NCBI RefSeq assembly: GCF_003478335.1
Contig: NZ_QUFB01000044.1
Coordinates: 1-24,845 of the forward strand
Source: Clostridium sp. AM49-4BH
GTDB lineage: Bacteria > Bacillota > Clostridia > Lachnospirales > Lachnospiraceae
DNA length: 24,845 bases
Direction of reading: 5' to 3'
A program made the position numbers and the translations under genes. The notes under the pieces are model-generated. The model saw only the letters and a program-made list of their open reading frames with translations. It was not told the DNA's origin and ran no database searches. Below are positions 10,303 to 24,672 of the stretch, in pieces. How positions within the stretch are numbered: the stretch's first letter is position 1; the number at the start of each line of letters is the position of its first letter.

Positions 10303-10414
10303 GAAAATTATATAAAACAGTATAACACAAAATAAAAGTGACATTGTGAACTGATTGAAATGCTTCTGATTTTTGCAACAAATGATTGATTTAACGAAAA
10401 GGAGATTTGATACG

Positions 10415-10654
10415 ATGAGAACAATATTTGCAGAATACAATCCCAAGCGCAACAGTATTGATGTTTACACCTCTGTTGGCTATATGCTCCGCATTGACTG
10501 TTGGGAAGCTGAAAAGAACTTAAAAACCACACCAGGATCAGACTGTGCATTAAACGCACTCGCCATTGATGAACCTCTTGAATATGCAAAATTATATCTT
10601 GATGGAAATTTGCAGATGTGGGTAGATGCGGAAGACTCATTAGATATTTTTTAA
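10415..10654 (+). CDS. DUF6061-like small protein
   Basis: A 79-residue acidic protein on the plus strand (MRTIFAEYNPKRNSIDVYT, then CALNALAIDEPLEYAKLYLD, ending DSLDIF). ATG 10415-10417 follows AAAAGGAG; the frame could open at 10373 but has no site there. Size, the N-terminal beta strands and the helical segment with a PLEYAKLYLDG-like block resemble DUF6061 proteins carried by Clostridia integrative elements. That match is from memory and moderate. No catalytic motif is visible. It is one of few plus-strand genes and stands alone. Confidence 0.6.
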   Translation: MRTIFAEYNPKRNSIDVYTSVGYMLRIDCWEAEKNLKTTPGSDCALNALAIDEPLEYAKLYLDGNLQMWVDAEDSLDIF

Positions 10655-10736
10655 TTTTTAAACAAATACAACAGTTTAAATCGCTATTAACCACAATATT
10701 TCCGGAAAATTCATCATATGTTTGTGCAAATGCAAA

Positions 10737-10833
10737 GAAACGGCGGCTCTGAAAATCAAAGCCGCCGTTTCATAGGCGCGTGAAAATGTGTCTGCTCTGC
10801 GACGGCTTTTTTTCTTTTGCCGTCGCGCTGCAG
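10737..10833 (-). repeat. Structured element 1 (two hairpins, shared with 15834-15945)
   Basis: Hairpin B: arms 10737-10752 and 10756-10771, 15 pairs plus one C-A mismatch three pairs from the loop. Linker ATAGGCGCG (10772-10780). Hairpin A: CTGC (10792-10795) with GCAG (10830-10833), then GCGACGGC (10799-10806) with GCCGTCGC (10819-10826), and a loop starting TTTTTTTCTTT. It lies 30 nt past the stop of the ABC permease on the minus strand, so it is that operon's 3' UTR. A short T-containing tail after hairpin B suggests it can terminate transcription. The same plan recurs at 15834-15945 with different stem bases. Confidence 0.7.
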
Positions 10834-10863
10834 ATAACCTATTCGTTCTATTTTGAACTTCTT

Positions 10864-12105
10864 TTATGCTACCTGATGTCTGCAATAGGAATGAATCGCC
10901 AAGAATGTAAACACAAATAATTCAATTCCTGCCGAAATCAAAATAACATGCGGTGTCCAGAAACTCATTCCACCGATATTCAGATAATTGAAATCTGCAA
11001 GCTGAGAAAGGAAATTGTTCTGCATACCAATTCCGGCAGATGGAAGTATGGTAGAGAGCCATGTTGCTCCCATCGCTACATAAGCAAAAAGCGGCATGAG
11101 AAGAACTACAATAGAGATCAGCAAAACTGTCAATGTGTCTTTACATTTTGCAGACAGGAACAACGTACAGCTAACCGTTGCTAATACAGAAAGTAAGCCC
11201 GCTGCTGCGAGAATTATCTGCAACTGCCCCAGATTGATGTTTGGCAGATTAATGATAGAGTATCGCATCTGAAACGATGTTTTTAAGCAATCCGTCCCGA
11301 ACGCTGCATCTAAAATCAGAATGTGTACCGTGATCCCGACAAGGAAAGTAACAACGAAAAGTGTAAATGCCGCCATAATTTTGGTAATTGCTAATTGTTT
11401 ATGCCCGTATTTGGTGGTTCGCAGGATGCTGTCACCGCCCGTTTGATATTCTCCGGCGAAAGTAGGTGCTGCGATTGCCACACACAAAATAGCAAGGAAC
11501 AAAATATAAAACTCAATATAATCAAATGCATCTTTAGAAATTCCAGAATGAAGATAAAATGGCGTATCAAGTTCTGAATATTTTTCAAGAGCTTTCTGCT
11601 GTGCGGTTTCGTTTTCTCTTTGCTCATTCCGCATGACATCCTGTAAATGTTCTGCGCACTTTTCATAATAGGCTCCGTCAATGTCATTCGGGTCAATATC
11701 CATTAAATCAGCACCAATGCCTGTTACTGGATCAGCAAACGCTTCGGACAGACCCATCAGCAAGTGACGGAACGGGACGATTTTTTCAACAAATACAGCC
11801 AGAGGAAAGCCCTCTTCCTCGACTGGCCCATATTCTCGAACGCAACTTTGATAAGTTTCCAAAGCCGATTTGATCCTATCCGGGGTCACTTCACCAGCGG
11901 ATGTTTTATATAAATCTTGTTTGTACTTGATAGCTGCCAAGCCATCTAATTCTGTAACCGTGCCATCTTCGTTTGGACGGTTAATACCCTCAAATGAAAT
12001 AGGCAGGTATGCCATGGCTACGGAAAGCAAAAGTGCGATTGCAAGTAAAATCATGGTACGCCGTGACTTCAAAATACGTTTTAGTTCAAGTCTAAAGAGC
12101 CGCAT
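10864..12105 (-). CDS. ABC-2 type transporter permease
   Basis: A 413-residue membrane protein. One N-terminal TM segment (about 18-35) is followed by a long extracytoplasmic region (about 36-210) and five more hydrophobic stretches from about 215 to the C-terminus. This is the plan of single-chain ABC-2 permeases involved in antimicrobial peptide or lipid export. The start at 12103-12105 follows AAGGAGGACAG and lies 1 nt after the ATPase stop, so the pair is coupled; the frame extending upstream to 12279 lies inside the ATPase gene and was rejected. The gene is followed by structured element 1. Substrate is unknown; self-protection against peptide antibiotics is plausible from the VanRSZ-like neighbours. 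Confidence 0.88.
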   Translation of the reverse strand: MRLFRLELKRILKSRRTMILLAIALLLSVAMAYLPISFEGINRPNEDGTVTELDGLAAIKYKQDLYKTSAGEVTPDRIKSALETYQSCVREYGPVEEEGFPLAVFVEKIVPFRHLLMGLSEAFADPVTGIGADLMDIDPNDIDGAYYEKCAEHLQDVMRNEQRENETAQQKALEKYSELDTPFYLHSGISKDAFDYIEFYILFLAILCVAIAAPTFAGEYQTGGDSILRTTKYGHKQLAITKIMAAFTLFVVTFLVGITVHILILDAAFGTDCLKTSFQMRYSIINLPNINLGQLQIILAAAGLLSVLATVSCTLFLSAKCKDTLTVLLISIVVLLMPLFAYVAMGATWLSTILPSAGIGMQNNFLSQLADFNYLNIGGMSFWTPHVILISAGIELFVFTFLAIHSYCRHQVA

Positions 12106-12106
12106 A

Positions 12107-12994
12107 TTATCTGTCCTCCTTTTCCAAGTCTGTCTGCGGGAACAACCACAGATACAGATCTTCCAATCGTGGCTCCGTTGTAACAGACCCATCAATTTCC
12201 GAATGTTCGGACAGATAACGAATAGAAACCTGATTGTGATCTTCGCCTCGCTGGTTGATAATGCGCAGCCGCATTTCACATTCCGGCAGCTTTGAGGTCG
12301 GAATTATGCAATTCCAAACCTTGCCCTCAATCCGCTTGACAAGTTCTGCGGTAGTTCCGACATCAACAATTTCTCCGGCTTTCATAATTGCGTTGCGCGT
12401 AGAAATATATTCTATGTCAGATACGATATGGGTGGAAATCAACACGATTCGATCATGCGAAAATTCGGAAATGAAATTCCGCAGACGCACGCGCTCTCCG
12501 GGATCAAGTCCTGCTGTCGGTTCGTCCATGACAAGTATCTCCGGGTCGTTCAACATAGCCTGCGCAATACCAACACGACGCTTCATGCCGCCTGACAGAT
12601 TGGAGATTTTTTTCTTTTTCACATCGGAGAGCGAAAGAATGTCCAACAAATAATTGATCTTTTTGGTAGTTGCCCTTGTATGAATATCTTTCAGCGCAGC
12701 CATATACTCCAAATAATCTTTGACCGTAAAATCCCGGTGATACCCAAAATCCTGCGGTAGAAAGCCAAACTTGCTTCGGTAGACTTCACCTAACTCTCGA
12801 ATGTCTTTTCCGTCATAGTAAACCGCTCCGTTGGTTGGTGTCATAATATCAGCAATCATGCGCATGAGCGTGGTTTTCCCTGCACCATTCGCCCCCAAAA
12901 GTCCCCAAACGCCGGGAGTCAACGTCAGATTGACATCATTTACTGCTGTTTTGTCTTTGAACTGCTTGCTTAAATGCTCTATTTTCAGTTCCAT
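12107..12994 (-). CDS. ABC transporter ATP-binding protein
   Basis: A 295-residue ATPase with Walker A GANGAGKTT (about 34-42), Q-loop FLPQDFG, signature NLSGGMKRR, Walker B ILVMDEPTAGLD and H-loop STHIVSD. It is of the CcmA/BcrA-like class that works with ABC-2 permeases. The last 75 residues are an accessory region. GGAGTG precedes the ATG. It forms an operon with the permease (1-nt gap). A terminator-like hairpin (13031-13072) separates it from the histidine kinase gene, and tandem repeats that resemble those of the response regulator promoter lie just upstream of that hairpin. Confidence 0.95.
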   Translation of the reverse strand: MELKIEHLSKQFKDKTAVNDVNLTLTPGVWGLLGANGAGKTTLMRMIADIMTPTNGAVYYDGKDIRELGEVYRSKFGFLPQDFGYHRDFTVKDYLEYMAALKDIHTRATTKKINYLLDILSLSDVKKKKISNLSGGMKRRVGIAQAMLNDPEILVMDEPTAGLDPGERVRLRNFISEFSHDRIVLISTHIVSDIEYISTRNAIMKAGEIVDVGTTAELVKRIEGKVWNCIIPTSKLPECEMRLRIINQRGEDHNQVSIRYLSEHSEIDGSVTTEPRLEDLYLWLFPQTDLEKEDR

Positions 12995-13030
12995 GCTTAC
13001 ACTCCTTTCTTTTGTTTCAGCTGAACAATA

Positions 13031-13072
13031 AAAAGCCCTTGTTCGATATCATTGTACCGAACAAAGGCTTTT
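13031..13072 (-). terminator. Hairpin between histidine kinase and ABC genes (terminator or attenuator)
   Basis: Arms 13031-13045 and 13058-13072 pair in 14 of 15 positions around 12 nt. On the minus strand the stem ends in TTTTT then ATT, as in an intrinsic terminator. Only 36 nt lie between it and the ATPase start and I see no promoter there. Transcripts for the ABC genes must therefore read through it or start at its base, so it may attenuate them. Confidence 0.7.
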
Positions 13073-13094
13073 CAATCTCAAAAATCACACGCTT

Positions 13095-13116
13095 AAATTC
13101 CTAAGTAATTCCTAAG
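13095..13116 (-). promoter_or_regulatory. Tandem 11-bp direct repeats upstream of the ABC operon
   Basis: On the minus strand CTTAGGAATTA and CTTAGGAATTT follow each other directly (11-bp period, plus-strand 13095-13116). That period is the standard spacing for OmpR/PhoB-type response regulators. A similar pair lies upstream of the response regulator gene (15510-15531). A weak -10-like GATTTT follows about 9 nt later. Binding by the local regulator is inferred. Confidence 0.5.
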
Positions 13117-13133
13117 ATCACATTCTTATTTTC

Positions 13134-14198
13134 CTAAGCGGAAAGTGGTAATGTAATCACAAAGTCTATGGTTTCGTTTTGACTGGATGCAGTAATCTTT
13201 CCACCATGTAAATGTATAATTTCTTCCGCAATAGAAAGACCAAGACCCGCACCACCTGTATTAGAAAGCCGAGCATCATCCAAGCGATTGAATTTTTCAA
13301 ATATACTGTTAAGCTGTTCCTGTGGAATTGTTTTTCCATGATTTTCAAAAGTGATCTGAATATCATGCTCTAACCGTTTGGCGGATATAGTGATTTCTGT
13401 CTGCGGGTAGCTATATGACGCTGCATTTCGTAAAAGGTTACTGAAAACTCTCGCCAGCTTTTCGGGATCAGCGTTCACAGATAAGTTGTCCTCTGCAGTA
13501 AATACCGCCGTGTTGCCATTTGCAGAGAGTGTCGGGTATATTTCATCTATTACCTGCGCAATCAGACAATGTAAATCCACAGTTTCTTTTTTGATAATAA
13601 CCGTATGTGCATTGTACTTGGTAATTTCAAAAAGTTCATTGATGAGCTTTTCAAGGCGCTCTGCCTTATTCAACGCCACTTTTACATACTTTTCCTTTTG
13701 CTGTTCAGGCATGTCAGGTGCTTCATGGAGCAGGCTCAAATAGCCGATTACTGTTGTGAGAGGGGTGCGTATATCATGTGCCAGATACATAATAATTTCA
13801 TTTTTCTTTTCTTCTGCCTGCTTTGCAGCCCGTTTGCTCAACAGAACAGACATTTTAATCTGATTGAGCTGTTCCTCCAGTTCTTTCAGTGGCTCAGACA
13901 ACGATACTGTATGATTGTTCTGCTCATAGACCGTTTGGGTTGCGTCAATTACTTCATCCAGATAGCCCCACGGCTTTTTCCAATAGTAATTGAAGATACA
14001 TATAAAGCCGAGCATCAGATACAAAATAAAAAGCAGATCAAGCCGCCAGTAGAGCCATGCAAAAATACCGTTGTCAAATTTTGAAAAGATGTAGTCCAAG
14101 ATAAGGGTCAAACCATATCCAACAACGGTATAAACCAGCAATGATAGGTATAAGCGCACTTTAAGGCGCTTTTCTGTTGTCATTTCTTTATTCGACAT
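13134..14198 (-). CDS. VanS-like sensor histidine kinase
   Basis: A 354-residue kinase. Two TM segments (about 15-38 and 47-70) enclose a very short external loop, so it probably senses within or at the membrane. A coiled stretch leads to the H-box YLAHDIRTPLT with His141, the N-box (NLLRNAASYSYP), and the G1/G2 boxes (GGAGLGLSIAEEI). The H-box wording and following GYLSLLHEAPDMP resemble the VanS class. The start at 14196-14198 follows GGAGGTG; the longer frame to 14249 lacks a site and overlaps vanZ. It lies 13 nt after the VanZ-like gene. Stimulus unknown; cell-envelope stress or a peptide is plausible. Confidence 0.93.
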   Translation of the reverse strand: MSNKEMTTEKRLKVRLYLSLLVYTVVGYGLTLILDYIFSKFDNGIFAWLYWRLDLLFILYLMLGFICIFNYYWKKPWGYLDEVIDATQTVYEQNNHTVSLSEPLKELEEQLNQIKMSVLLSKRAAKQAEEKKNEIIMYLAHDIRTPLTTVIGYLSLLHEAPDMPEQQKEKYVKVALNKAERLEKLINELFEITKYNAHTVIIKKETVDLHCLIAQVIDEIYPTLSANGNTAVFTAEDNLSVNADPEKLARVFSNLLRNAASYSYPQTEITISAKRLEHDIQITFENHGKTIPQEQLNSIFEKFNRLDDARLSNTGGAGLGLSIAEEIIHLHGGKITASSQNETIDFVITLPLSA

Positions 14199-14211
14199 GA
14201 GAATACACCTC

Positions 14212-14721
14212 CTACCGATTAGCAAACAGAAGAAAGCCAAGCAGACCAATCACGACAACACTTACTATGCCTGCCAGAATGGAAAACAGTCTGTTTGCTT
14301 TTATTCTATTTCCGATTAACCGGGCTGCCATCGAATATACAGCAAGCCCCAAAAGACCACCTGCCGTATTTGTAAGTACATCAGTAATATCAGAACGTCC
14401 GACTGCTAAGATATACTGCATAGTTTCCAATAAAAAACTTGTTCCAGCAATCAGCATGAACTTCACATATAATTTTGTTCTTGGCAGAAGCATTTGAAGA
14501 TAAATGCCCATAGGAACAAAAATCAAGAAATTTTCGAGTACCTCTGTTAAGTGAAATGCTGCGCCAACTTCTTTGTCATAGTGAAAAGGAATAAGGTTTA
14601 TACTCCTTACTTTATCCAGATCACTGATTGAAAACTGTAGTTTGAACAGTATGATCCAAACCAGAAGTGCCAGATAAATTAAGAATAAAATAGTTGCCAA
14701 ACAATTTGATTTTCTCTTCAT
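14212..14721 (-). CDS. VanZ family membrane protein
   Basis: A 169-residue protein with four to five TM segments. The VanZ core is clear: SINLIPF around residue 45, ENFLIFVPMGIYLQML, then E-x-x-QYILAVGRSDITDVL and NTAGGLLG. VanZ itself gives low-level teicoplanin resistance by an unclear mechanism, and related proteins occur with many Gram-positive regulators. The start at 14719-14721 follows GGAGAACGCT. It lies between response regulator (16 nt) and kinase (13 nt), so it belongs to that operon, an unusual place for VanZ between the two signalling partners. Confidence 0.93.
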   Translation of the reverse strand: MKRKSNCLATILFLIYLALLVWIILFKLQFSISDLDKVRSINLIPFHYDKEVGAAFHLTEVLENFLIFVPMGIYLQMLLPRTKLYVKFMLIAGTSFLLETMQYILAVGRSDITDVLTNTAGGLLGLAVYSMAARLIGNRIKANRLFSILAGIVSVVVIGLLGFLLFANR

Positions 14722-14737
14722 AGCGTTCTCCTTTCGC

Positions 14738-15433
14738 TTAAATTTTGTAGCCGACACCCCAAATCGTTTTAATATACTGCGGAGTATCGGAAGTATCGTT
14801 CAGTTTCTCGCGCAGATGCCGGATATGCACAGTAATTGTGCTGCTGTTTTTAGAGTAGTATTCATCTTTCCAAACCGCATGAAACAGTTCCTCAATGCTT
14901 ACAACATTTCCAGCACTTGACAAAAGGACGTGGAGAATAGAAAATTCTGTCGGGGTTAGAGAAACAGGTTCCCCGTCTAACAGACATTCATGGGTCTGCA
15001 CATTCAAGCACAATTTGTTATAGGAAAGTTCCGATGGAATTTTCTCTGTGATGATACCGGGTGAATATTTCTTGTAACGTCTTAACTGCGCTTTCACTCT
15101 GGCAACTACTTCAAGTGGGCGAAAGGGTTTTGTCACATAATCGTCCGCTCCCAATGTCAGCCCCGTTATTTTATCCGTTTCCTCAATTTTAGCCGTTAGC
15201 ATTATGATTGGATAAGTGTATTTCTTTCGGATAAGCTGGCAAAGTGAAAAGCCGTTCATATCCGGGAGCATAATATCCAGAATGGCAAGATCAATGTCGC
15301 CGCTTTCAATACACGACATGGCATCCGTTGCGCAGTAAAATTTATAAACAACGTAATTTTCGTTTTTCAAGTAGACCTCCAACAGATCCGCTATATCTTG
15401 CTCGTCATCTATAATCAATATCTTTTCAGACAT
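14738..15433 (-). CDS. VanR-like OmpR-family response regulator
   Basis: A 231-residue regulator. Residues 1-118 are the receiver (acidic pair DDE at 9-11, phospho-acceptor Asp53 in LAILDIMLPDM, Thr in MLTAK, Lys in VTKPF). Residues about 130-231 are a winged-helix output domain (LTPTEFSILHVLL, then SSTITVHIRHLREKL, ending YIKTIWGVGYKI). The start at 15431-15433 follows GGAG; longer frames lack a site. It is first in the operon with VanZ and the kinase. Its promoter carries an extended -10 and an 11-bp tandem repeat, so it probably controls itself and the ABC genes downstream. Confidence 0.95.
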   Translation of the reverse strand: MSEKILIIDDEQDIADLLEVYLKNENYVVYKFYCATDAMSCIESGDIDLAILDIMLPDMNGFSLCQLIRKKYTYPIIMLTAKIEETDKITGLTLGADDYVTKPFRPLEVVARVKAQLRRYKKYSPGIITEKIPSELSYNKLCLNVQTHECLLDGEPVSLTPTEFSILHVLLSSAGNVVSIEELFHAVWKDEYYSKNSSTITVHIRHLREKLNDTSDTPQYIKTIWGVGYKI

Positions 15434-15465
15434 ATTTTCAACTCCTTTGCTCATATTTCCAATTA

Positions 15466-15531
15466 AGTATAGCAAATACAACATCTAAATTCACAATGGA
15501 TTGCCTGAGAAATTATTAAGATTTTCCTAAC
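15466..15531 (-). promoter_or_regulatory. Response regulator promoter with 11-bp tandem repeats
   Basis: On the minus strand an extended -10 (TGC then TATACT, plus 15466-15474) lies 33 nt before the response regulator ATG. Centred some 50 nt further upstream, GTTAGGAAAAT and CTTAATAATTT (15510-15531) form tandem 11-bp units resembling those at 13095-13116, especially the TTAGGAA core. This arrangement suits autoregulation by the OmpR-type protein. Confidence 0.5.
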
Positions 15532-15585
15532 TTTCGAATTTAGGCAACTCAAAATGCTAACGTAATTTACATATCAGTTTTTTAT

Positions 15586-15801
15586 GTGTCATACATATTT
15601 TCCAATATACTTCCATACCAGACGGATGAGGTTGACCTGTTTTCTGATGATGACATGGATGGCGATATACAGCCAATTCCACGAGAGGATTATGAAAGAC
15701 TGATTGAATTTCTACAGAATTACAATCCACCGGCAATACTTCCAATCCAGATAGCTTATTATGCAGGACTTCGTATCGGTGAAGCCTGTGGTCTGGCATA
15801 G
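15586..15801 (+). pseudogene. Tyrosine recombinase internal fragment (catalytic Arg region)
   Basis: A plus-strand open frame reads IQPIPREDYERLIEFLQ, then PPAILPIQIAYYAGLRIGEA and CGLA before a stop. AGLRIGE carries the first catalytic arginine of phage-type integrases. The N-terminal core-binding domain, the H-x-x-R and the tyrosine are missing. The only start is a GTG without a site, so it is not a functional gene. It differs in family and strand from the fragment at 8027-8251, so at least two recombinases have decayed here. Confidence 0.75.
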
Positions 15802-15833
15802 ATGCGAAAGATTCCTTCTAGGTATACGCAAGA

Positions 15834-15945
15834 AACGGCGGTTCTGATTTCTCAAAACCGCCGTTAGGATAATAACTTAAAATAGGCGCGCAAAATCACC
15901 TGCCCCAGCCAGCGGTTTTTTTCTTTCCCCGTAGTTGGGGCAGGT
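15834..15945 (-). repeat. Structured element 2 (two hairpins, shared with 10737-10833)
   Basis: Hairpin B: arms 15834-15847 and 15852-15865, with one C-A mismatch at the same place as in element 1 but T-A pairs where element 1 has C-G and A-T. Linker ATAGGCGCG (15882-15890). Hairpin A: 15898-15909 with 15934-15945 (12 pairs, one G-T), inner CGG/CCG, and the loop tract TTTTTTTCTTT (15916-15926) identical to element 1. It lies 35 nt after the stop of the ABC exporter gene on the minus strand, forming that operon's 3' UTR. It probably terminates or stabilises the transcript. Confidence 0.7.
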
Positions 15946-15980
15946 TCATGCGCTATGCAATTATTCTTCTTTAGCTTCTA

Positions 15981-17690
15981 TCAAGCCGATATTTTTTGCT
16001 CTGCGTTCCACATAGCAGCATATTTTCCGCCTTTAGCCATCAATTCATCGTGAGTACCAGCTTCAGCAATCTTTCCGTCAGATACCACAAGGATTTGATC
16101 AGCGTTTTTGACAATGGAAAGGGTATGAGCAATCATTACCACTGTCTTTTTCTCTTTTAATAGATTAGCGATGGCCTGCTTTACGGCAAGCTCATTTTCA
16201 ATGTCAAGAGATGCTGTTGCTTCATCCAAGAGCAGGATGGGGCTATTTTTCAGTATAGCGCGGGCTATTGAAATTCGCTGACGCTCACCGCCAGAGAGAA
16301 GATTTCCGTTCTCACCAGTCGGCGTATCATATCCCTTTTCCATCTTACGGATGAAGCTGTCACAGTTAGCCTCCCGGCAAGCATCCTCGATTTCCGTGTC
16401 CGTAGCATTAGGGCGGGCGTGTCGGATATTATCCCGGATGGTATCGTCAAAAAGAAATACGTCCTGGTCTACCATAGAAACTTGTTCCAGTACACGCTCT
16501 GCGGCAACATGGTTAATGGGTTTACCTCCAATAGAAATCGTCCCGCCCGTTGCTTCATAATATTTTGCAATCAGATTCAAAATAGTAGATTTGCCAGAGC
16601 CAGAGTCTCCGACAATGGCCGTGAGCTTTTGATCTGGCACCGTAAAGGTGGCGTGTTTTAGTACAGGTTCACCGGGAACATACTCAAAATCTACATTGTC
16701 AAATGTGATTTCATGGGTAGCTGTGTGAAGCGGCTCCATGCTGCCAGTTTCCTCCGGCTCATTCATTACACTCAAGATTTTGTTTTTCGAGATCATCAGG
16801 TTCTTATAACTGGTGAGGTCTACAAAAATCGAGTTAGCCAGCTTTGCACAGAACAGGGGCAGCATACAAATCAAAAGGTAGTCCACCGTGTTCAGTGTCC
16901 CTGCGACCCAGGGTGCATAGGCCAGCAAGATAACCAGCGGGCAGGACAGCCAACTCAAAATACCAAAGACCGCACCAATAGGAAGCACTTTTGATTCGTA
17001 CACAAAGCTGATCCGACAGAACTCCCGCATAGCGTTGATAACGGTTTTATTCTTCAAACCACCTACGCCATAGGCCCGGAAAGTTTGAATACCAGACACA
17101 TACTCCACAATGCTGCTGACATTCTCTGCACAAATATCATTCTTTTCTTTACCATACTTCCGAACCATACGGAAGGAAAGCCACAGTCCAGGGATCAAAA
17201 GCAAGTCGGCAATCAGCAGGATAATTCCGGCAGGCACATAAATGGTCATCACAAAAATAATCAGCATGAGCGAAAGTGCAAAACTCTTTGCCATATCACC
17301 GATCTTATGGGTCAGGATTTTTTCATAGTTGTTTACATCGCTTGTGATGGTATTGATATAATCGCCGGTCTGTCCCTGGGTAAACCGGGAAAGCGGGATA
17401 CGCTTCAAATGGTCGCCCATAAAGAGGCGGGTATTCTTGCTGACCTCTGCACCGCCGATCTGCGCTTTGGTATAGCCATAGCTGTAAATCAGGATACGAA
17501 GAAGAAAAACCACCGCGATCACACAGGTCAGAACCAGGACACGGTTCATGTCAAATTGTCCCGACCACAAAAACTGCATGACAGAGTAAAGCAGCATAAA
17601 CAGGCTGCCGGAGAGAAGCCCTTCCAGAACAGTCCCGCCAACGCCAATATAAAAATTACGGTTCTTTTTCAATACATCATGCTCACTCAT
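15981..17690 (-). CDS. ABC exporter half-transporter (TM plus ATPase), second of the pair
   Basis: A 569-residue fused transporter. Residues 1-310 form six TM segments; the ATPase domain has Walker A GDSGSGKST, Q-loop MVDQDVFLF, signature LLSGGERQR, Walker B ILLLDEATASLD and H-loop IAHTLS, all canonical. The start at 17688-17690 overlaps the stop of the first exporter gene by 8 nt and follows GGAGG; the frame extending to 17822 lies inside that gene. It most likely forms a heterodimer with its neighbour, like YbtP/YbtQ-type or lipid-A-exporter-like pairs. Direction and substrate cannot be read; the ECF genes in the same operon suggest handling of a small ligand or metal complex. Confidence 0.93.
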   Translation of the reverse strand: MSEHDVLKKNRNFYIGVGGTVLEGLLSGSLFMLLYSVMQFLWSGQFDMNRVLVLTCVIAVVFLLRILIYSYGYTKAQIGGAEVSKNTRLFMGDHLKRIPLSRFTQGQTGDYINTITSDVNNYEKILTHKIGDMAKSFALSLMLIIFVMTIYVPAGIILLIADLLLIPGLWLSFRMVRKYGKEKNDICAENVSSIVEYVSGIQTFRAYGVGGLKNKTVINAMREFCRISFVYESKVLPIGAVFGILSWLSCPLVILLAYAPWVAGTLNTVDYLLICMLPLFCAKLANSIFVDLTSYKNLMISKNKILSVMNEPEETGSMEPLHTATHEITFDNVDFEYVPGEPVLKHATFTVPDQKLTAIVGDSGSGKSTILNLIAKYYEATGGTISIGGKPINHVAAERVLEQVSMVDQDVFLFDDTIRDNIRHARPNATDTEIEDACREANCDSFIRKMEKGYDTPTGENGNLLSGGERQRISIARAILKNSPILLLDEATASLDIENELAVKQAIANLLKEKKTVVMIAHTLSIVKNADQILVVSDGKIAEAGTHDELMAKGGKYAAMWNAEQKISA

Positions 17691-19446
17691 GCTGCTCGCC
17701 TCCCTCCAACTGATAAGTAATATTCCGGGCTGTTTCGTAGTCCTCCCACGCCTTCCGATAGTAAGCATTGTTCTTTCGGACTTCCTCATGGGTTCCGACA
17801 CAGGTAATTGTGTGATTTTCAACCACTGCTACACGCTCGCACATCTTCAACGCGCTCAAACGATGGGCTACCACAATGACAGTCTTTCCCTTACAGAGAT
17901 TTTGAATGGCTTTGTCAATCTCCATCTGATTTTCCGGGTCAGAGGCGCTTGTGGCCTCGTCTAAGATCAAAATGGGGGCATTCTTCAGGATAGCGCGGGC
18001 AATGGCAATCCGCTGTTTTTCACCGCCGGAGAAGCGAGAGCCAAAGCTGCCCACCTTCGTGTCATATCCATCCGGCAAAGACATGATGAAATCATCAATC
18101 TGCGCCTCTTTTGCGGCGGTCCGTACTTTTTCCAGAGTGGCGTTACTGCCCATGCGGATATTTTCTAAAACGCTGTCACGGGTCAGGAAGGTCTTTTGGA
18201 ACACAATGGCGACATTTTTTAGGATAGTATCATAATTGAGTTCCTTTACATTTTTCCCGCCAATCAGCACTTCGCCCTCCTGCACATCATAGAACCGGGA
18301 GATCAGCTCAATCACGGTACTTTTACCGGCACCAGACTGTCCCACAAGGGCCATGCGTTCACCATCTTTAATTTTGAGATTAACGCCTTGCAGTACATCG
18401 GTCTTGCCATCATAGGAAAACCGAACATTCCGAAGTTCAATATCGTGATTTTGGGGAAAGTCCGCTCCACCCTCATAAATTGGAATATCCAGTATCTCTT
18501 TGGTCTTAGTAACAGCGTTCAGCACATTGGCAAAATTAGTCCCCAGTTCCTGTAGGGGGCGTATTTCCGTCAGATACATGGAACCTACATAGACGAACAG
18601 CAAAAATGCGCTGGCAGCCAGTGAGCCTTTCAGGAAAAACATTCCGCCGATTGGAACCATTATCAACATCCCACATTCGATGATAACAACAAAGACCGCA
18701 TAAGGTGGCCCCATGCGCCGGGAAGTTTCATTCCACATGGCATTTTCTTCCTGGATAGCGTCTGAAAACTTTTGAAACGATTTGCTCCCCATGTTATAGG
18801 CTTTAATCAATTTCATGCCGCTGATGTACTCAATCATAACCGAGTTCAGTGTGGTAATGGAGTGATTGGCCCGTTCCATCAGGTCATCCGTATTGCGGAA
18901 CATCATCCCCATTACAACAACAGCAAGGATCAGCGGAACCAGGGAAATCAATGCCAGAGGAATATTGACGGTCATCAGATAAATAAAGATGACTACCGGC
19001 CCCACCAGATAGCACACAAGGTCAGGAAGGTTATGGGCCAGAAACAGCTCCAACTTTTCAATATCTTCATTCAGAACCGTTTTTATGTCCCCGGTGCGCC
19101 GTTCATTCAAGGCCCCTAAAGGCGCTCTGGCCATGTGTTCTGCAACCATGCAGCGCACTTTGAAAAGAGCGCCATAGGCCCCTTTGTGGGCTGCTACGCC
19201 GGAACAGCCAAACAGGGCAAACCGCAAAGTTACCGCCACTGCAATCATTACCACGGTATGTACAACAAGTTCCTGCGTGCAGGTATGATTGAAGGTGGCG
19301 TCCATCAGCCGGTAAATTCCAATGTAAGGGACGATAATGCAAAGACCGCTGACCGCCGATAGAAAAATTGCCAGGAACAGCCAGATTTTTTGCTCACCGG
19401 CCCAGTGGAGCAGCAAAGCTACTCTGTTTTCTTTTTTCTGTTTCAT
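17683..19446 (-). CDS. ABC exporter half-transporter (TM plus ATPase), first of the pair
   Basis: A 587-residue protein with six TM segments in residues 15-310 and an ATPase domain after about 340: Walker A GQSGAGKST, Q-loop VFQKTFL, signature FSGGEKQRI, Walker B ILILDEATSASD, H-loop VAHRLS. Both nucleotide sites of the pair look intact. Its start lies 3 nt after the stop of the double ATPase gene, so translation is coupled along the operon. Together with the gene at 15981 it should form one transporter in the cytoplasmic membrane. Base composition here is visibly richer in G+C than in the 1-10 kb part. Confidence 0.93.
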   Translation of the reverse strand: MKQKKENRVALLLHWAGEQKIWLFLAIFLSAVSGLCIIVPYIGIYRLMDATFNHTCTQELVVHTVVMIAVAVTLRFALFGCSGVAAHKGAYGALFKVRCMVAEHMARAPLGALNERRTGDIKTVLNEDIEKLELFLAHNLPDLVCYLVGPVVIFIYLMTVNIPLALISLVPLILAVVVMGMMFRNTDDLMERANHSITTLNSVMIEYISGMKLIKAYNMGSKSFQKFSDAIQEENAMWNETSRRMGPPYAVFVVIIECGMLIMVPIGGMFFLKGSLAASAFLLFVYVGSMYLTEIRPLQELGTNFANVLNAVTKTKEILDIPIYEGGADFPQNHDIELRNVRFSYDGKTDVLQGVNLKIKDGERMALVGQSGAGKSTVIELISRFYDVQEGEVLIGGKNVKELNYDTILKNVAIVFQKTFLTRDSVLENIRMGSNATLEKVRTAAKEAQIDDFIMSLPDGYDTKVGSFGSRFSGGEKQRIAIARAILKNAPILILDEATSASDPENQMEIDKAIQNLCKGKTVIVVAHRLSALKMCERVAVVENHTITCVGTHEEVRKNNAYYRKAWEDYETARNITYQLEGGEQHE

Positions 19447-19449
19447 AGA

Positions 19450-20922
19450 TCACCTCTCCTTTCCATCTGAAACAGAGAACAGCTCTCTCAATTTCGGGAG
19501 GGCATCCATTGTAACTGGTACATCATCGGGCATTTCGCCCTCGTCAAAATGCAGGACACGGGAGCAGGTACGGCAGACAAATTCAAAATCGTGGGTGACA
19601 ATGAAAATAACCTTTCCCATATTGGACAACCGGCGGATCATTCCCGCCACCTGCGTCATACTGTCAAAATCAAGGCCGCTGGTCGGTTCATCGAATACCA
19701 GCAGATCTTTCCCACAAATCATGCTAACAGCTACAGCTACTCGTTGCTTTTGACCGCCAGAAAGCGTATTTGGATGGCGCTCCCGATATTGGGTAAGGCC
19801 TAATTTCTCCAAAGTTGCATTTACCAGTGTTTGATCTGGATTGCGTATACCAAAGGAGCACTCTGCCTCCACGCTGTCAGCGAAAAGTTCATAATTCACA
19901 TCCTGCATAACCATGTAAGAGCGTTTCAGCCTTTCCTTACGCTCAATCGGCTCGCTTTCCCACAAAAATTGTCCATCGCAGTCTTTGTGAAGCCCACAGA
20001 GAGCGCGGGAAAATGTAGTCTTTCCAGCTCCGTTGTGGCCGACAACACCAATCACTTCGCCCTTTCCGGCGGATAGCTCAATGTCATGCAAAATTGTTTG
20101 CTTCTTGTAACGGAGCGTCACATTCCGCAGCTCCAATACAGGGGTAGGCGCAGGCAAGTGGGCTTTTTGCGGGAATACCGCCTGTAGATCAACAGCTCGC
20201 AGCCCCATGTGTTCACGATCAGGTTCAGATAGCTGCCAAAATTCTTCCGGGGTGTATATTCCTTTGATTTCTCCTTTTTCCAGATAAACAATTCGGTCAG
20301 CCAACTCCATCAGGTAGTACAGACGATGTTCCGCTATCAAAACTGTTTTGCCCTGTTTTTTTATCAGCCGCAAATGTTCCTTTAGTTCCTGGATCGAAGT
20401 CATATCCAGATTAGAGGATGGTTCATCCAATAGATAAATCTGTGGGTTCATGGCATAAACAGAAGCAAAGGCGATTTTCTGCTTTTCTCCGCCGGACAAC
20501 TCAAAAATATTTCTGTTTCGCAGCTTTTGAATATGCAAATCTTCAGTTGTCTGCTCTACTCGCTCAGCTAATTTCTCAGGAGGGCGAGCTTCATTTTCAA
20601 TTCCAAAGGCAATCTCACTGTCTGTATCAACATTAAAAAACTGCGTCCGTGGATTTTGGAAAACGGAGCCAACCTTAGCGGCAATCTGATACATGGGGAT
20701 ATTGCTGATTTCCTGACCATCTACCAGCACACGGCCATGAAGTTCCCCCTGATAAAACTGAGGGATCAGTCCATTCACCAGCCTTGTAATCGTTGTTTTT
20801 CCGCACCCGCTGCGGCCACAGAACAGGACGAATTCTCCGTCCGAAATTTTCAAATTGATGTCGCGCAGCCCACCATGTTCCTGCCCCGTATAGGAAAACG
20901 ATACATTTTCAAACTCAATCAA
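19450..20922 (-). CDS. ECF transporter ATPase with two fused ATP-binding domains
   Basis: A 490-residue protein containing two complete ABC domains. First: Walker A GRSGCGKTT, signature ELSGGEKQK, Walker B IYLLDEPSSNLD. Second (from about 260): GHNGAGKTT, TLSGGQKQR, LLVFDEPTSGLD. It corresponds to EcfA and EcfA' in one chain. I prefer the TTG start at 20920-20922: it follows GGAGG by 9 nt, overlaps the T-component stop (TTGA), and begins at the conserved IEFENVSFSY strand. The upstream alternative to 20946 adds non-family residues. It powers uptake with the T and S components encoded just upstream. Confidence 0.93.
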   Translation of the reverse strand: MIEFENVSFSYTGQEHGGLRDINLKISDGEFVLFCGRSGCGKTTITRLVNGLIPQFYQGELHGRVLVDGQEISNIPMYQIAAKVGSVFQNPRTQFFNVDTDSEIAFGIENEARPPEKLAERVEQTTEDLHIQKLRNRNIFELSGGEKQKIAFASVYAMNPQIYLLDEPSSNLDMTSIQELKEHLRLIKKQGKTVLIAEHRLYYLMELADRIVYLEKGEIKGIYTPEEFWQLSEPDREHMGLRAVDLQAVFPQKAHLPAPTPVLELRNVTLRYKKQTILHDIELSAGKGEVIGVVGHNGAGKTTFSRALCGLHKDCDGQFLWESEPIERKERLKRSYMVMQDVNYELFADSVEAECSFGIRNPDQTLVNATLEKLGLTQYRERHPNTLSGGQKQRVAVAVSMICGKDLLVFDEPTSGLDFDSMTQVAGMIRRLSNMGKVIFIVTHDFEFVCRTCSRVLHFDEGEMPDDVPVTMDALPKLRELFSVSDGKER

Positions 20923-21644
20923 CCGATCACACCTCCTCGCACACATAATTCAAAAATCAGATAAGCTACGGCAACGGCCATGACGCCCCAATCGGAAATT
21001 CCGCATTTTATCTGGACAAGACAGGTGCGTGGATTGGGATTTTCAATTCCACGAGTGACAGAAGCAACAGAAAGATCATCCGCCGCTTTTGAAGCTGCCA
21101 TCAATAAAGGCACATAAATACACTCAACCGTCATGCCCGGATGTGTTAAAAAGCCCGCCAGAGATGGTGAAACATCTCTCATCCGCATAGCGTCTGTGAT
21201 ATAGCGCCAGTCCTCTTGAATAGTTGGAATGTACCGCAGCATAACTGCCATAGGAATTACTAACTTTTTGGGTGCGCGGACACGGTTCATAGCAGACAGG
21301 AACTCATTGACTTTTGTAGTAGTCAGAACAATCCCAGCCAAGGTTCCGCACGCATAGACCTTATGAAACAAGCCTAAAAAGGCAATAAACATTGTCCGCA
21401 GCGTGCCTGTCATTTCTGCCATGATCCAAACTGTCAGGGCACAGATGACCGCATAAAAGCATACAGCCTTAATGACATATTTCCACTTTCCAAAGAAAGC
21501 CCCCAATATCGCAATCAGCATAACAAGGATAAATTGATATGCAAGTGAGGGCGCAAACATGGACGATAAAACACACATAAGAATAAGAAAGAGCTTGGCC
21601 CGTGGGTCGAGCCAAAGCTCTTTCTTATGGCGTTTACCGCTCAT
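20919..21644 (-). CDS. ECF transporter T component (EcfT/CbiQ family)
   Basis: A 241-residue membrane protein with five to six TM segments. The two coupling helices carry the short Ala-Arg-type signatures that dock on the ATPases: DAMRMRDVSP near residue 150 and SVTRGIENP near 195. The start (21642-21644) overlaps the S-component stop by 4 nt (ATGA) and its end overlaps the ATPase start, so the three ECF genes are coupled in fixed proportion. The dedicated arrangement in one operon suggests a group I ECF transporter serving a single substrate. Confidence 0.92.
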   Translation of the reverse strand: MSGKRHKKELWLDPRAKLFLILMCVLSSMFAPSLAYQFILVMLIAILGAFFGKWKYVIKAVCFYAVICALTVWIMAEMTGTLRTMFIAFLGLFHKVYACGTLAGIVLTTTKVNEFLSAMNRVRAPKKLVIPMAVMLRYIPTIQEDWRYITDAMRMRDVSPSLAGFLTHPGMTVECIYVPLLMAASKAADDLSVASVTRGIENPNPRTCLVQIKCGISDWGVMAVAVAYLIFELCVRGGVIG

Positions 21645-22252
21645 GCTGTAATACCTGCTTTTTCAAACTGCTTTTTCAGCATTTTGCAGCCTACAAAAGC
21701 GCTGATTGCAGATGTAATGATAACAGCAACAAACATGGCAATCAGGATGCCGGTATTTGCAGTTGCCTGCATGGTGTCGATGTAACTCTGTTCAGTTCCG
21801 TTCCCCAGCATGGTCTGTGCCCAGCCGTTGGGGTCAACAAAGAACACGATATATGAACCAGTGCCACCGAGAGAGAACAGGATATAAGACAGGCTGTTGA
21901 GTTTTTTGCTTTTGTACTGCCCTGCACCAGCAACAAAGTCCGCGACAATCGCCATGATCATGTAGCCCAATGCAAAAGCCCAGTGCATACCAGTCACGAA
22001 CCAAATAATACCCATGATAACGCCCATTATAGAAAGGCTCCAACGCTTATGTACTTTTGCAATCAGCAAAAGATAAATGGGGCCAGCAAGCAGCCCACCT
22101 CCTGCTGGCATGAAAAAAGTAAGTACAGGATTCGTTGCAAAAAAGACACCGCCCACCAATACAAAAACAAATAACAGTGCAGTAAAAATACCTGTTGTTA
22201 CAAGGTCTTTCACTGTCAGACCTTTGTTCATAGAATTTACTTGATTACTCAT
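21641..22252 (-). CDS. MptD/Trep_Strep-type ECF transporter S component
   Basis: A 203-residue membrane protein with about five to six TM segments. It starts MSNQVNSMNKGLTVKDLV, then TTGIFTALLFVFVLVGGVFF and PAGGGLLAGPIYLLLIAKV, the pattern of the Trep_Strep (TIGR02185) / MptD family of putative S components. Charged loop residues HKRWS and GQYKSKKLN lie inside. GGAGGTC precedes the ATG. As first gene of the operon it defines the imported ligand, but that ligand is not established for this family to my knowledge. AraC-type sites lie 50-160 nt upstream. Confidence 0.88.
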   Translation of the reverse strand: MSNQVNSMNKGLTVKDLVTTGIFTALLFVFVLVGGVFFATNPVLTFFMPAGGGLLAGPIYLLLIAKVHKRWSLSIMGVIMGIIWFVTGMHWAFALGYMIMAIVADFVAGAGQYKSKKLNSLSYILFSLGGTGSYIVFFVDPNGWAQTMLGNGTEQSYIDTMQATANTGILIAMFVAVIITSAISAFVGCKMLKKQFEKAGITA

Positions 22253-23685: not shown

Positions 23686-24654
23686 TTAATAATATCCTCT
23701 GGCTTCTTGCCATCCTTTTACATACCACCTAATTCCAACATATACCAGTTGCACCAATAATAAGAGAAATAGCATATTGATCGGCAAGACTGTCTTTATC
23801 CAATCTCCAAAGTAGATTGCTATTTCCAGGCTTATAAGTGTTACCAGTATGGTAATCATATCCCAACAGTATTTCTTATATAGCCCTGCAATCTTTATCC
23901 CTATAAACGCTACAAGTATTCCCGCACCCACCAGACATCCACCGCAAATCAATATTCTTATCAGCCAGTATATAATTCTGTCAATGACAGGATTGGATAT
24001 TCCATTACTAATCTGTGCCACATTCTTTCCTATCAGTGCAATCCAGCCAGCAATAGTCTGTGTGAAAGTTTCGATTGTATCAAAGAATACCACGCAATCA
24101 GAAATAAATATTTTTGACCGTATCATCTGGAAAAGAGTAGTTGATACGGAATACCATATCAGCAGAAACATCAATGCTTCATACATGACTGTTTTTGTTT
24201 TATATCTGCCTGCCAGTTTTTCCCTCTGCGTATCATACTTTTCTTTGGCTTTCAGATAAGCTGTCTGATTACAATTCTGACACTTTTGATAGAGTACCGG
24301 CTTTTCAACCGGTATCTCTACTTTTTTCTGATGAAAGAGTGCATAGTCCCGTTCCTGTTCTGCCTGCCTTAGCTTATCTTGACATTCCTCTGTCATGATT
24401 TCGGCAGCGTGCGTTTTCTCTTTCTCGCTCTGCAACAATTCTTTTGTTTTCCTCAAGTCGTTCTTTAAGGCTTGAATGTTCCCTGCTCTGTTCTCGCTGT
24501 TTAACCTCTCGTTCAAGGTCAGCGATTCGTCGAGCTGCACTTTCAGTTTCCTGATAGTCCGGTCTTTCTGGTCGAGTTCTTCCTGCATCTGCTCCGTCAG
24601 CATTAGCAGTTCTTCCAGTTGATCGTCGTTCTTTGAGTTTCTTAATTCGTTCAT
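23686..24654 (-). CDS. DUF6040-like coiled-coil membrane protein
   Basis: A 322-residue protein. Residues 1-120 are a charged coiled coil (EELLMLTEQMQEELDQK, then ERLNSENRAGN, then LRKTKELLQSEKEK). A CQNCNQ motif near 132 could bind metal with partner residues. Four hydrophobic segments follow (about 158-180, 235-260, 270-288, 293-312). This matches DUF6040 proteins carried in Tn1549-type conjugative elements, near the relaxase region (from memory). AAGGAAGG precedes the start; ATG 24652-24654 or the TTG just before are both possible. Its function is unknown; a role in conjugation or envelope association is only context. Confidence 0.75.
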   Translation of the reverse strand: MNELRNSKNDDQLEELLMLTEQMQEELDQKDRTIRKLKVQLDESLTLNERLNSENRAGNIQALKNDLRKTKELLQSEKEKTHAAEIMTEECQDKLRQAEQERDYALFHQKKVEIPVEKPVLYQKCQNCNQTAYLKAKEKYDTQREKLAGRYKTKTVMYEALMFLLIWYSVSTTLFQMIRSKIFISDCVVFFDTIETFTQTIAGWIALIGKNVAQISNGISNPVIDRIIYWLIRILICGGCLVGAGILVAFIGIKIAGLYKKYCWDMITILVTLISLEIAIYFGDWIKTVLPINMLFLLLLVQLVYVGIRWYVKGWQEARGYY

Positions 24655-24672
24655 CAATCAACCTTCCTTTCT

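What the first reader, a model, noticed from the sequence alone, without database searches (positions are those of the whole stretch)
10737..15945. Two copies of an unrecognised two-hairpin element with compensatory changes, each behind an ABC transporter gene
Seen: both elements have hairpin B with a C-A mismatch exactly three pairs from the loop, the linker ATAGGCGCG, and hairpin A whose loop contains the identical tract TTTTTTTCTTT. The stem bases differ but pairing is kept (GGCGGCT/AGCCGCC against GGCGGTT/AACCGCC; hairpin A stems are wholly different). Each lies 30-35 nt past the stop of an unrelated minus-strand ABC transporter gene. Inference: a conserved 3' UTR RNA (terminator plus stabiliser or protein-binding loop) or a mobile structured repeat. 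On the transcribed strand the loop is purine-rich (AAAGAAAAAAA).
Basis: seen in the sequence. Interest (0 to 1): 0.7.

Follow-up and report, generated by a model that had tools for sequence, protein, structure and literature searches.

The report
Transposon leader-RNA remnants behind transporter operons
The two hairpin elements look like leftover copies of the switch-like RNA leader that sits in front of the regulator gene orf7 of Tn916-type conjugative transposons, and in other gut bacteria and plasmids the same leader is found at the end of varied cargo operons, some antibiotic-resistance operons among them.

Summary
In detail: two related structured elements lie at w:10726-10836 and w:15821-15946, about 30 and 35 nt past the stops of two minus-strand ABC genes. 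A covariance model finds the element in many Clostridia and behind vanB and bcrABDR operons. The gene before it varies (57 sequence clusters); the gene after it is usually one, an Orf7-like sigma-region-4 protein (119 of 157 places). Rfam SQ2397 (RF03532) is the same RNA: 229.8 bits in a Tn916-type region, beside orf9 and before orf7. So the element is the front half of the orf7 leader, with cargo fused to its 5' edge. Besides hairpins A and B a third, mutually exclusive helix (M2:M3) is kept, as in attenuators. Both window copies have lost the orf7 part, so here they are probably plain terminators. The switch is inferred, its trigger unknown. New variant of a known kind.

The parts
10726..10836 (-). 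element copy 1 (front half of an orf7-type leader)
   Evidence: R1 match 93.2 bits (the copy is in the model's own alignment); folds z -6.9
10792..10833 (-). copy 1 hairpin A: M1 10819-10833, loop AAAAGAAAAAAA 10807-10818, M2 10792-10806
   Evidence: fold; pair counts on the family
10737..10771 (-). copy 1 hairpin B (M3, M4), an intrinsic-terminator-like hairpin followed by a U-rich stretch on the minus strand
10758..10810 (-). copy 1 alternative helix M2:M3 (10800-10810 with 10758-10767), excludes both hairpin A and hairpin B
   Evidence: duplex -15.1 kcal/mol; family counts
15821..15946 (-). element copy 2
   Evidence: R1 match 91.0 bits (in the model's alignment); SQ2397 26.1 bits, E 0.0068
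15898..15945 (-). copy 2 hairpin A with loop containing AAAGAAAAAAA
15834..15865 (-). copy 2 hairpin B (M3, M4) followed by a U-rich stretch on the minus strand
15854..15919 (-). copy 2 alternative helix M2:M3 (15910-15919 with 15854-15863)
   Evidence: duplex -12.9 kcal/mol
10864..15484 (-). cargo operon 1: response regulator, VanZ-like, histidine kinase, ABC ATPase, ABC-2 permease; its last stop codon is about 30 nt before copy 1
15981..22252 (-). cargo operon 2: Trep_Strep membrane protein, CbiQ-like, double ABC ATPase, two ABC exporters; its last stop codon is about 35 nt before copy 2
10373..10654 (+). DUF6061 gene, convergent with cargo operon 1, on the side where most relatives have the orf7-like gene
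   Evidence: PF19537, 42.8 bits; no orf7-like gene found beside either copy
15600..15817 (+). fragment that reads like a tyrosine integrase (by eye; start approximate), joined at about 15798 to the last ~20 nt of a second DUF6061 copy
   Evidence: integrase resemblance recalled, no family search made

Best explanation
What it is (shown by comparison): each element is the 5' half (hairpins A and B) of the leader RNA of orf7, the sigma-region-4 regulator gene of Tn916/Tn1549-type conjugative elements, the RNA that Rfam holds as SQ2397. In some relatives the leader begins next to the divergent repressor-like gene orf9; in many others 1.2-7.7 kb, where annotated a cargo operon, lies between orf9 and the leader and ends just before hairpin A, so that cargo transcription would run into the leader. 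How it works (partly inferred): on the minus strand M1:M2 (hairpin A) forms first and leaves M3 free to pair with M4 (hairpin B). In the cargo-fused lineage hairpin B is an intrinsic terminator; in Tn916 the same position is a hairpin that holds the Shine-Dalgarno sequence of a small leader ORF. If M1 is kept from M2, M2 pairs with M3, hairpin B cannot form, and transcription or translation proceeds into the leader ORF, a second terminator-like hairpin and orf7. Default is thus off. The trigger that opens hairpin A is not known; a ribosome finishing the cargo gene is one candidate. In this window both copies have lost everything after hairpin B, so they are remnants that today most likely just end the two transporter transcripts.
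For: Constant downstream gene: orf7-like within 1200 nt on the same strand in 119 of 157 places with at least 700 nt held; the upstream side (both strands) and the downstream opposite strand gave 1 place in all. Rfam SQ2397: 229.8 bits (cut-off 100) in the tet(M)-bearing Tn916-type region L235, beside orf9 and before orf7, and over cut-off at three places that R1 also finds; 0 of 14 control genomes. Orf9-like gene on the opposite strand upstream of 37 of 175 places (7 at 83-99 nt, 30 at 1.2-7.7 kb), same strand 2, downstream 3. In L001-L004 the last cargo gene is bcrD or vanX-B. Terminator strand: 5 or more U of 9 after hairpin B in 90 of 91 on minus, 6 of 91 on plus. Helix M2:M3: 93.3% of 883 cells paired, shuffles 90.6% (0 of 500 as high), covariation score 0.223 against 0.170 (0 of 500); minus strand 824 of 883, plus 708; all six core pairs in 62 of 78 against 6 of 65 for the matched control M1:M4. 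Small ORF with its Shine-Dalgarno in a hairpin: regular-expression hits at 95 of 157 places, 43 of the 48 printed encode Lys-Lys; the Tn916 leader ORF does too.
Against: The energy model prefers A plus B; blocking M1 in silico still gave hairpin B, not M2:M3, so the switch would have to be kinetic or factor-driven. The cargo stop lies -6 to 146 nt from hairpin A (133 places), often too far for a terminating ribosome. Covariation at M2:M3 is modest: two of five measures are reached by 8 and 24 of 500 shuffles, one slid version exceeds it on two counts, the main changing pair splits two lineages, and the M1:M4 control fails mainly at two of its six positions. 38 of 157 places, the window's included, show no orf7-like gene. 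R1 itself scores Tn916 only 26.4 bits; the link runs through SQ2397 and intermediates. In L236 a mef(H) piece lies between leader and orf7-like gene. The 91 rows were found with a model whose 3' tail is U-rich. No expression data were seen. Window copies fail Rfam's cut-off.
Confidence: 0.74

Rival explanations
1. Plain tandem terminators: hairpins A and B are an inert insulating terminator pair at the end of ICE cargo operons; M2:M3 is a by-product of A and B being similar palindromes.
For: Hairpin B has terminator features on the minus strand; A plus B is the most stable fold. For the two window copies, with no orf7 left, this is the likeliest present role.
Against: If M2:M3 were a by-product of palindrome likeness, M1:M4 should pair as well; it forms all six core pairs in 6 of 65 against 62 of 78, though the failure is mainly at two positions. 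In Tn916 the hairpin-B position has no U-run but holds a Shine-Dalgarno sequence, yet M2:M3 pairs.
Confidence: 0.3
2. Recombination site or cassette end: the structured DNA marks a place where cargo modules are joined, like the 3' site of integron cassettes, and its conservation reflects DNA rather than RNA.
For: Varied upstream genes right up to hairpin A (57 clusters); two units 4.5 kb apart in L230 and four elements within 18 kb in another genome; the window holds a 5.15-kb module absent from two relatives, and L195 carries cargo 1 with hairpin A but diverges before hairpin B.
Against: Pairing is asymmetric between strands in a way that RNA of one strand explains. The orf7-like gene is repeated in the arrays too, so ordinary homologous recombination between repeated leader-orf7 stretches would suffice.
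Confidence: 0.12
3. 3' UTR stabiliser or protein-binding RNA for the transporter mRNAs, with the A-rich loop as the binding site.
For: The A-rich loop is kept in most of the 91 model-found rows (by eye), though the model was built on sequences picked for the tract.
Against: The upstream genes change, the downstream gene does not; seven relatives have the element 83-99 nt from a divergent orf9-like gene, four of these looked at in full.
Confidence: 0.12
4. Plus-strand attenuator: TTTTTTTCTTT is the U-run of a terminator on the plus strand.
For: On the plus strand the complements of M3 and M2 can partly pair just before the T-run (seen in the sequence).
Against: M3:M4 forms 834 of 1007 pairs as plus-strand RNA against 970 on minus; one M2:M3 position 17 of 83 against 83 of 83.
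Confidence: 0.03

Closest known systems
Rfam SQ2397 (RF03532), 'cis-regulator of HTH transcription factor' (Rfam 14 paper PMC7779021, passages with its table seen; its cited source PMC3649979, passages only, does not name SQ2397 in the main text)
   Same: Hairpin A with A-rich loop, the following hairpin, the strand and the downstream gene; above cut-off at three R1 hits and in two Tn916-type regions.
   Different: About 104 model positions before hairpin A are missing in copy 2 (16 nt instead); window copies score 26.1 and 15.0 bits against 100; hairpin B has a terminator U-run, whereas in Tn916 it holds a Shine-Dalgarno sequence.
Tn916/Tn1549 regulatory region orf9-orf7-orf8 (PMC7288454, passages seen; Celli and Trieu-Cuot 1998 known only from its reference list)
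   Same: Gene order orf9, leader, orf7, small HTH gene, xis, int (L235; L004, with vanB between).
   Different: In L235 the resistance gene tet(M) lies before orf9; in the cargo-fused relatives the cargo lies between orf9 and the leader.
tet(M) leader of Tn916 (Rfam sRNA_0030, RF02864; attenuation described in a passage of PMC7288454)
   Same: A leader with a small ORF in front of an ICE gene; both Rfam families hit the same record.
   Different: Other sequence and other gene.
trp-type transcription attenuators (general knowledge)
   Same: Three consecutive mutually exclusive helices, the last a terminator.
   Different: The small ORF seen here comes after hairpin B; an ORF over the first arm was not searched for; no trigger known.

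Membership tests
Rfam SQ2397 (RF03532) | Score at or above the gathering cut-off of 100 bits | tested here: not met
   Window copy 2: 26.1 bits, copy 1: 15.0. Met by Tn916-type L235, L236 (229.8) and by one place each in G180, G283, G213.
Rfam SQ2397 (RF03532) | Hairpin with A-rich loop followed by a second hairpin, on the sense strand of the regulator gene | tested here: met
   alignments.
Rfam SQ2397 (RF03532) | Located upstream of an HTH or sigma-like regulator gene | tested here: not met
   Met at 119 of 157 places, not for the two window copies.
Intrinsic terminator | G+C-rich hairpin followed by a U-run | tested here: met
   Hairpin B mean -19.2 kcal/mol, mean 6.2 U of 9, 90 of 91 with 5 or more U.
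Intrinsic terminator | Terminates transcription | not testable with these tools
   No RNA data.
Attenuator (mutually exclusive helices) | An alternative helix that excludes the terminator, kept by covariation | tested here: met
   caveats: shared ancestry, two of five measures weaker.
Attenuator (mutually exclusive helices) | Read-through changes with a signal | not testable with these tools
   -
Integron attC site | Core sites and extrahelical bases of attC; an integron integrase nearby | not tested
   Considered from memory only.

The most novel reading that the evidence does not exclude
Cargo operons of many kinds (vanB and bcrABDR resistance operons, ABC exporters, a MATE pump and others) have been placed in front of one and the same RNA switch of the ICE activator gene orf7, so that induction of the cargo operon feeds transcription into the switch and couples cargo expression to excision and transfer. 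[quoted passage not shown]
Probability: 0.33. Interest if true: 0.82.

Novelty: new variant of a known kind. Interest (0 to 1): 0.6.

Why it matters
It ties an unexplained repeated hairpin to a concrete gene-control region, gives the sparsely described Rfam family SQ2397 a place (the orf7 leader of Tn916-type elements) and a testable three-helix switch, and shows that varied cargo operons end at this leader. If cargo induction is gated by the leader, it bears directly on how antibiotics or other signals set off transfer of conjugative elements in gut bacteria. For the window itself the consequence is modest: two remnants that probably end transcription.

Tried and rejected
Plus-strand attenuator idea: my first reading, dropped when the mismatches proved to be G-U pairs on the minus strand. 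Own promoter just before hairpin A in cargo-fused copies: no -35/-10-like column conservation in 72 distinct upstream stretches out of 97, but the script anchored several rows on a wrong TGC, so the test is rough. Ribosome occlusion by the cargo gene as a general trigger: stop-to-hairpin distances are too variable. Forcing M1 unpaired in the folding program did not produce M2:M3. Mapping the M2/M3 letters on an orf7 protein tree: set aside, because my motif parser took part of the hairpin-A arm for M3 in several sequences (10 apparent mismatches among 118, against 3 of 80) and because leader and gene may recombine. First covariation counts used sequences picked by a pattern that fixes part of the motif; replace them. 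Rfam at gathering threshold found nothing in the window.

Rows dropped and overlaps: two of the 93 rows of alignment A3 (opposite-strand matches) were left out but are counted. The stricter pattern lost L024 and L067; one search also left out 20 of 117 by a filter, some of which one search took back. The pattern-found and model-found sets overlap in species and in some loci fetched twice (for example L009 and L132; window copy 1 counts twice), so counts are of places, not of independent events. The orf9 profile was built from five sequences, L206 and L002 among them, so L206 and the bcr relative L001 match partly by construction. No opposite-strand control was run for the upstream ORFs.

Paper searches for a prior description (terms): SQ2397 is named in one held paper; among the titles listed I saw none on an orf7 leader switch. 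Of papers I saw only passages of PMC7779021, PMC3649979 and PMC7288454; the rest as listings.
Full report
WHAT IS IN THE WINDOW. Read on the minus strand, the strand of the ABC genes, each is: M1, A-rich loop AAAGAAAAAAA, M2 (hairpin A), a linker with CGCGCCUAU, M3, short loop, M4 (hairpin B), then UUUCUU. The minus-strand fold of hairpin B is uninterrupted (16 pairs in copy 1, 14 in copy 2), because the plus-strand C-A mismatch is a G-U pair there. The last stop codons of the two transporter operons lie about 30 and 35 nt before hairpin A. Cargo operon 1 is response regulator, VanZ-like, histidine kinase, ABC ATPase and ABC-2 permease; cargo operon 2 is Trep_Strep, CbiQ-like, double ABC ATPase and two ABC exporters.

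RELATIVES. Copy 1 is 90-95% identical to a stretch in 135 of 156 matching plasmid records, mostly Enterococcus; in the four looked at first it lies at the 3' end of bcrD. A copy-2-like stretch (75-76% over 60% of the query) is in 14 records; in the one looked at it follows vanX-B of a Tn1549-type vanB region. A covariance model R1 from 42 aligned copies was run on whole genomes: 78 of 250 sampled genomes of the nearest genome's family and 49 of 398 of its phylum have a match at E 0.01 or better; at 45 bits or more, by my count of the listings, 39 of 250 and 8 of 398. Weak matches may be chance.

CONTEXT. Of 171 places with enough flank, 133 have a codirectional ORF of at least 100 aa whose stop lies -6 to 146 nt before hairpin A; these ORFs fall into 57 BLAST clusters (limit 1e-8). 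Pfam matches among the 57 representatives include ABC-2 permeases, FtsX, methyltransferases, D-Ala-D-Ala dipeptidase, BacA and MatE (25 of 87 families shown). I saw no conserved promoter before hairpin A (rough test). On the other side, 119 of 157 places have an orf7-like gene within 1200 nt on the same strand (68 of 83 pattern-found, 51 of 74 model-found); searching the upstream side on both strands and the downstream opposite strand gave one place. The profile for that gene was built from pattern-found neighbours, but the model-found places were selected by RNA alone. Of five examples three pass the Pfam cut-off of sigma-70 region 4 and two fall below their cut-offs (NCBIfam similar but below cut-off); two more in L230 pass.

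TN916. In four relatives (L203, L206, L207, L210) the order is orf9-like gene on the opposite strand, about 100 nt, hairpin A, hairpin B, a hairpin with AGGAGG and a small ORF, another hairpin, the orf7-like gene and an orf8-like gene (the Tn916 gene names are recalled, then matched by position to the annotated Tn916-type region L235). Rfam SQ2397 scores 229.8 bits in L235 and L236, starting at the first bases of orf9 and running towards orf7, and 184-233 bits at three places that R1 finds as L203, L204 and L206. R1 alone gives Tn916 only 26.4 bits (E 9.8e-5), so the link runs through SQ2397 and the intermediates. An orf9-like gene lies upstream on the opposite strand of 37 of 175 places: 7 at 83-99 nt, 30 at 1.2-7.7 kb; same strand 2, downstream 3; of 56 places with at least 4 kb held upstream, 23 opposite and none same strand. 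Where annotation was seen (L001, L002, L004) the stretch between is the bcr or vanB operon. An exception: in L236 a mef(H) piece lies between the leader and the orf7-like gene. I infer that cargo has been placed between orf9 and the leader, many times or by repeated exchange.

STRUCTURE AND MECHANISM. On the 91 rows used from the model-made alignment A3 (86 distinct), M3:M4 forms 970 of 1007 pairs as minus-strand RNA against 834 as plus-strand RNA, M2:M3 824 of 883 against 708. The stored structure (A and B) has 17 pairs with changes on both sides and 94.2% paired, above all 500 shuffles; A3 was fitted to that structure. For M2:M3, to which A3 was not fitted, 93.3% of cells pair against 90.6% in shuffles and covariation is 0.223 against 0.170 (0 of 500 each); cells changed on both sides 45 against 21.8 (0 of 500); but pairs with a change on both sides (5) and further pair types (17) are reached by 8 and 24 of 500 shuffles, and the -3 slide exceeds it on these two counts while pairing only 54.0% of cells. 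Pairing each M2 with another sequence's M3 lowers the mean from 6.97 to 6.70 of 8 (0 of 2000 as high). M1 and M4, which should pair equally well if A and B were merely similar palindromes, form all six core pairs in 6 of 65 against 62 of 78 for M2:M3; the failure is mainly at two of the six positions (22 of 82 and 48 of 80 paired). In Tn916 the same M2:M3 helix can form (10 pairs), but there M3 and M4 flank the GGAGG of a leader ORF (MKYIIYNKFPYIGFLSKKVVYLQ), followed by a U-rich terminator-like hairpin (-21.6 kcal/mol) before orf7. In the cargo-fused leaders a small ORF has its AGGAGG inside GGCGGC...GCCGCC-like arms; a regular expression finds such a start at 95 of 157 places, and 43 of the 48 printed products contain Lys-Lys, mostly KKA. 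I infer a default-off leader: A then B; M2:M3 as the alternative state. Against it, the folding program prefers A plus B, also with M1 blocked, and no trigger is visible.

TERMINATOR. Hairpin B averages -19.2 kcal/mol and is followed by 5 or more U of 9 in 90 of 91 rows on the minus strand, 6 of 91 on the plus strand; the rows were found with a model whose tail is U-rich, which favours this count.

THE WINDOW COPIES TODAY. Neither has an orf7-like gene within 1200 nt; copy 1 faces a convergent DUF6061 gene. Two relatives (L159, L221) carry the DUF6061 side joined directly to copy 2 and its operon, without w:10642-15797; L150 has the window's arrangement over w:10119-12336 at 99.3%; L195 matches w:10766-13830 at 97.8% and diverges between hairpins A and B. 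So the window holds two stacked cargo-element units, or the two relatives have lost one. Stacking with orf7-like genes kept is seen elsewhere: two units in L230 and four elements in 18 kb in another genome, each with an orf7-like match. I conclude that the window copies are remnants that probably serve as terminators.

CERTAINTY. Identity as orf7-type leader about 0.93; terminator on the minus strand about 0.9; functional M2:M3 switch about 0.65; coupling of cargo induction to ICE activation about 0.33.

Noticed in passing
window 10622-10641 and 15798-15817: An imperfect 20-nt repeat (TAGATGCGRAAGAYTC) at the two edges of a 5.15-kb stretch that L159 and L221 lack; it is the 3' end of the DUF6061 gene and of a truncated second copy.
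   Followed up: partly
L235:3464-3564, L004:6616-6713, L238:2846-2943, L008:3420-3517, L029:424-521, L076:5277-5391, L090:2461-2558: Rfam 'pemK' RNA (RF02913) lies near the integrase side in several loci, in Tn916-type L235 just beyond xis; it may be a second RNA of the same elements.
   Followed up: no
L231-L232 (four elements at G107:C1 2424737, 2431920, 2438657, 2442490): Tandem modules of cargo, element and orf7-like stretch, 4-7 kb apart, as if cargo accumulates by recombination between repeated leader-orf7 stretches.
   Followed up: partly
small ORF after hairpin B, e.g. L012, L021, L235: The small ORF encodes Lys-Lys in 43 of 48 printed cases, where letters were seen by AAAAAA within an A-run before G; the same kind of A-run-GCC string occurs in loop/M2 of hairpin A and is complementary to M3; not explained.
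   Followed up: partly
L090, just upstream of its element: A further hairpin-A copy of the other sequence type lies directly before the element: a partial tandem copy.
   Followed up: no
window 23686-24657 (-): DUF6040 gene (E 3e-104) near the right end of the window.
   Followed up: no
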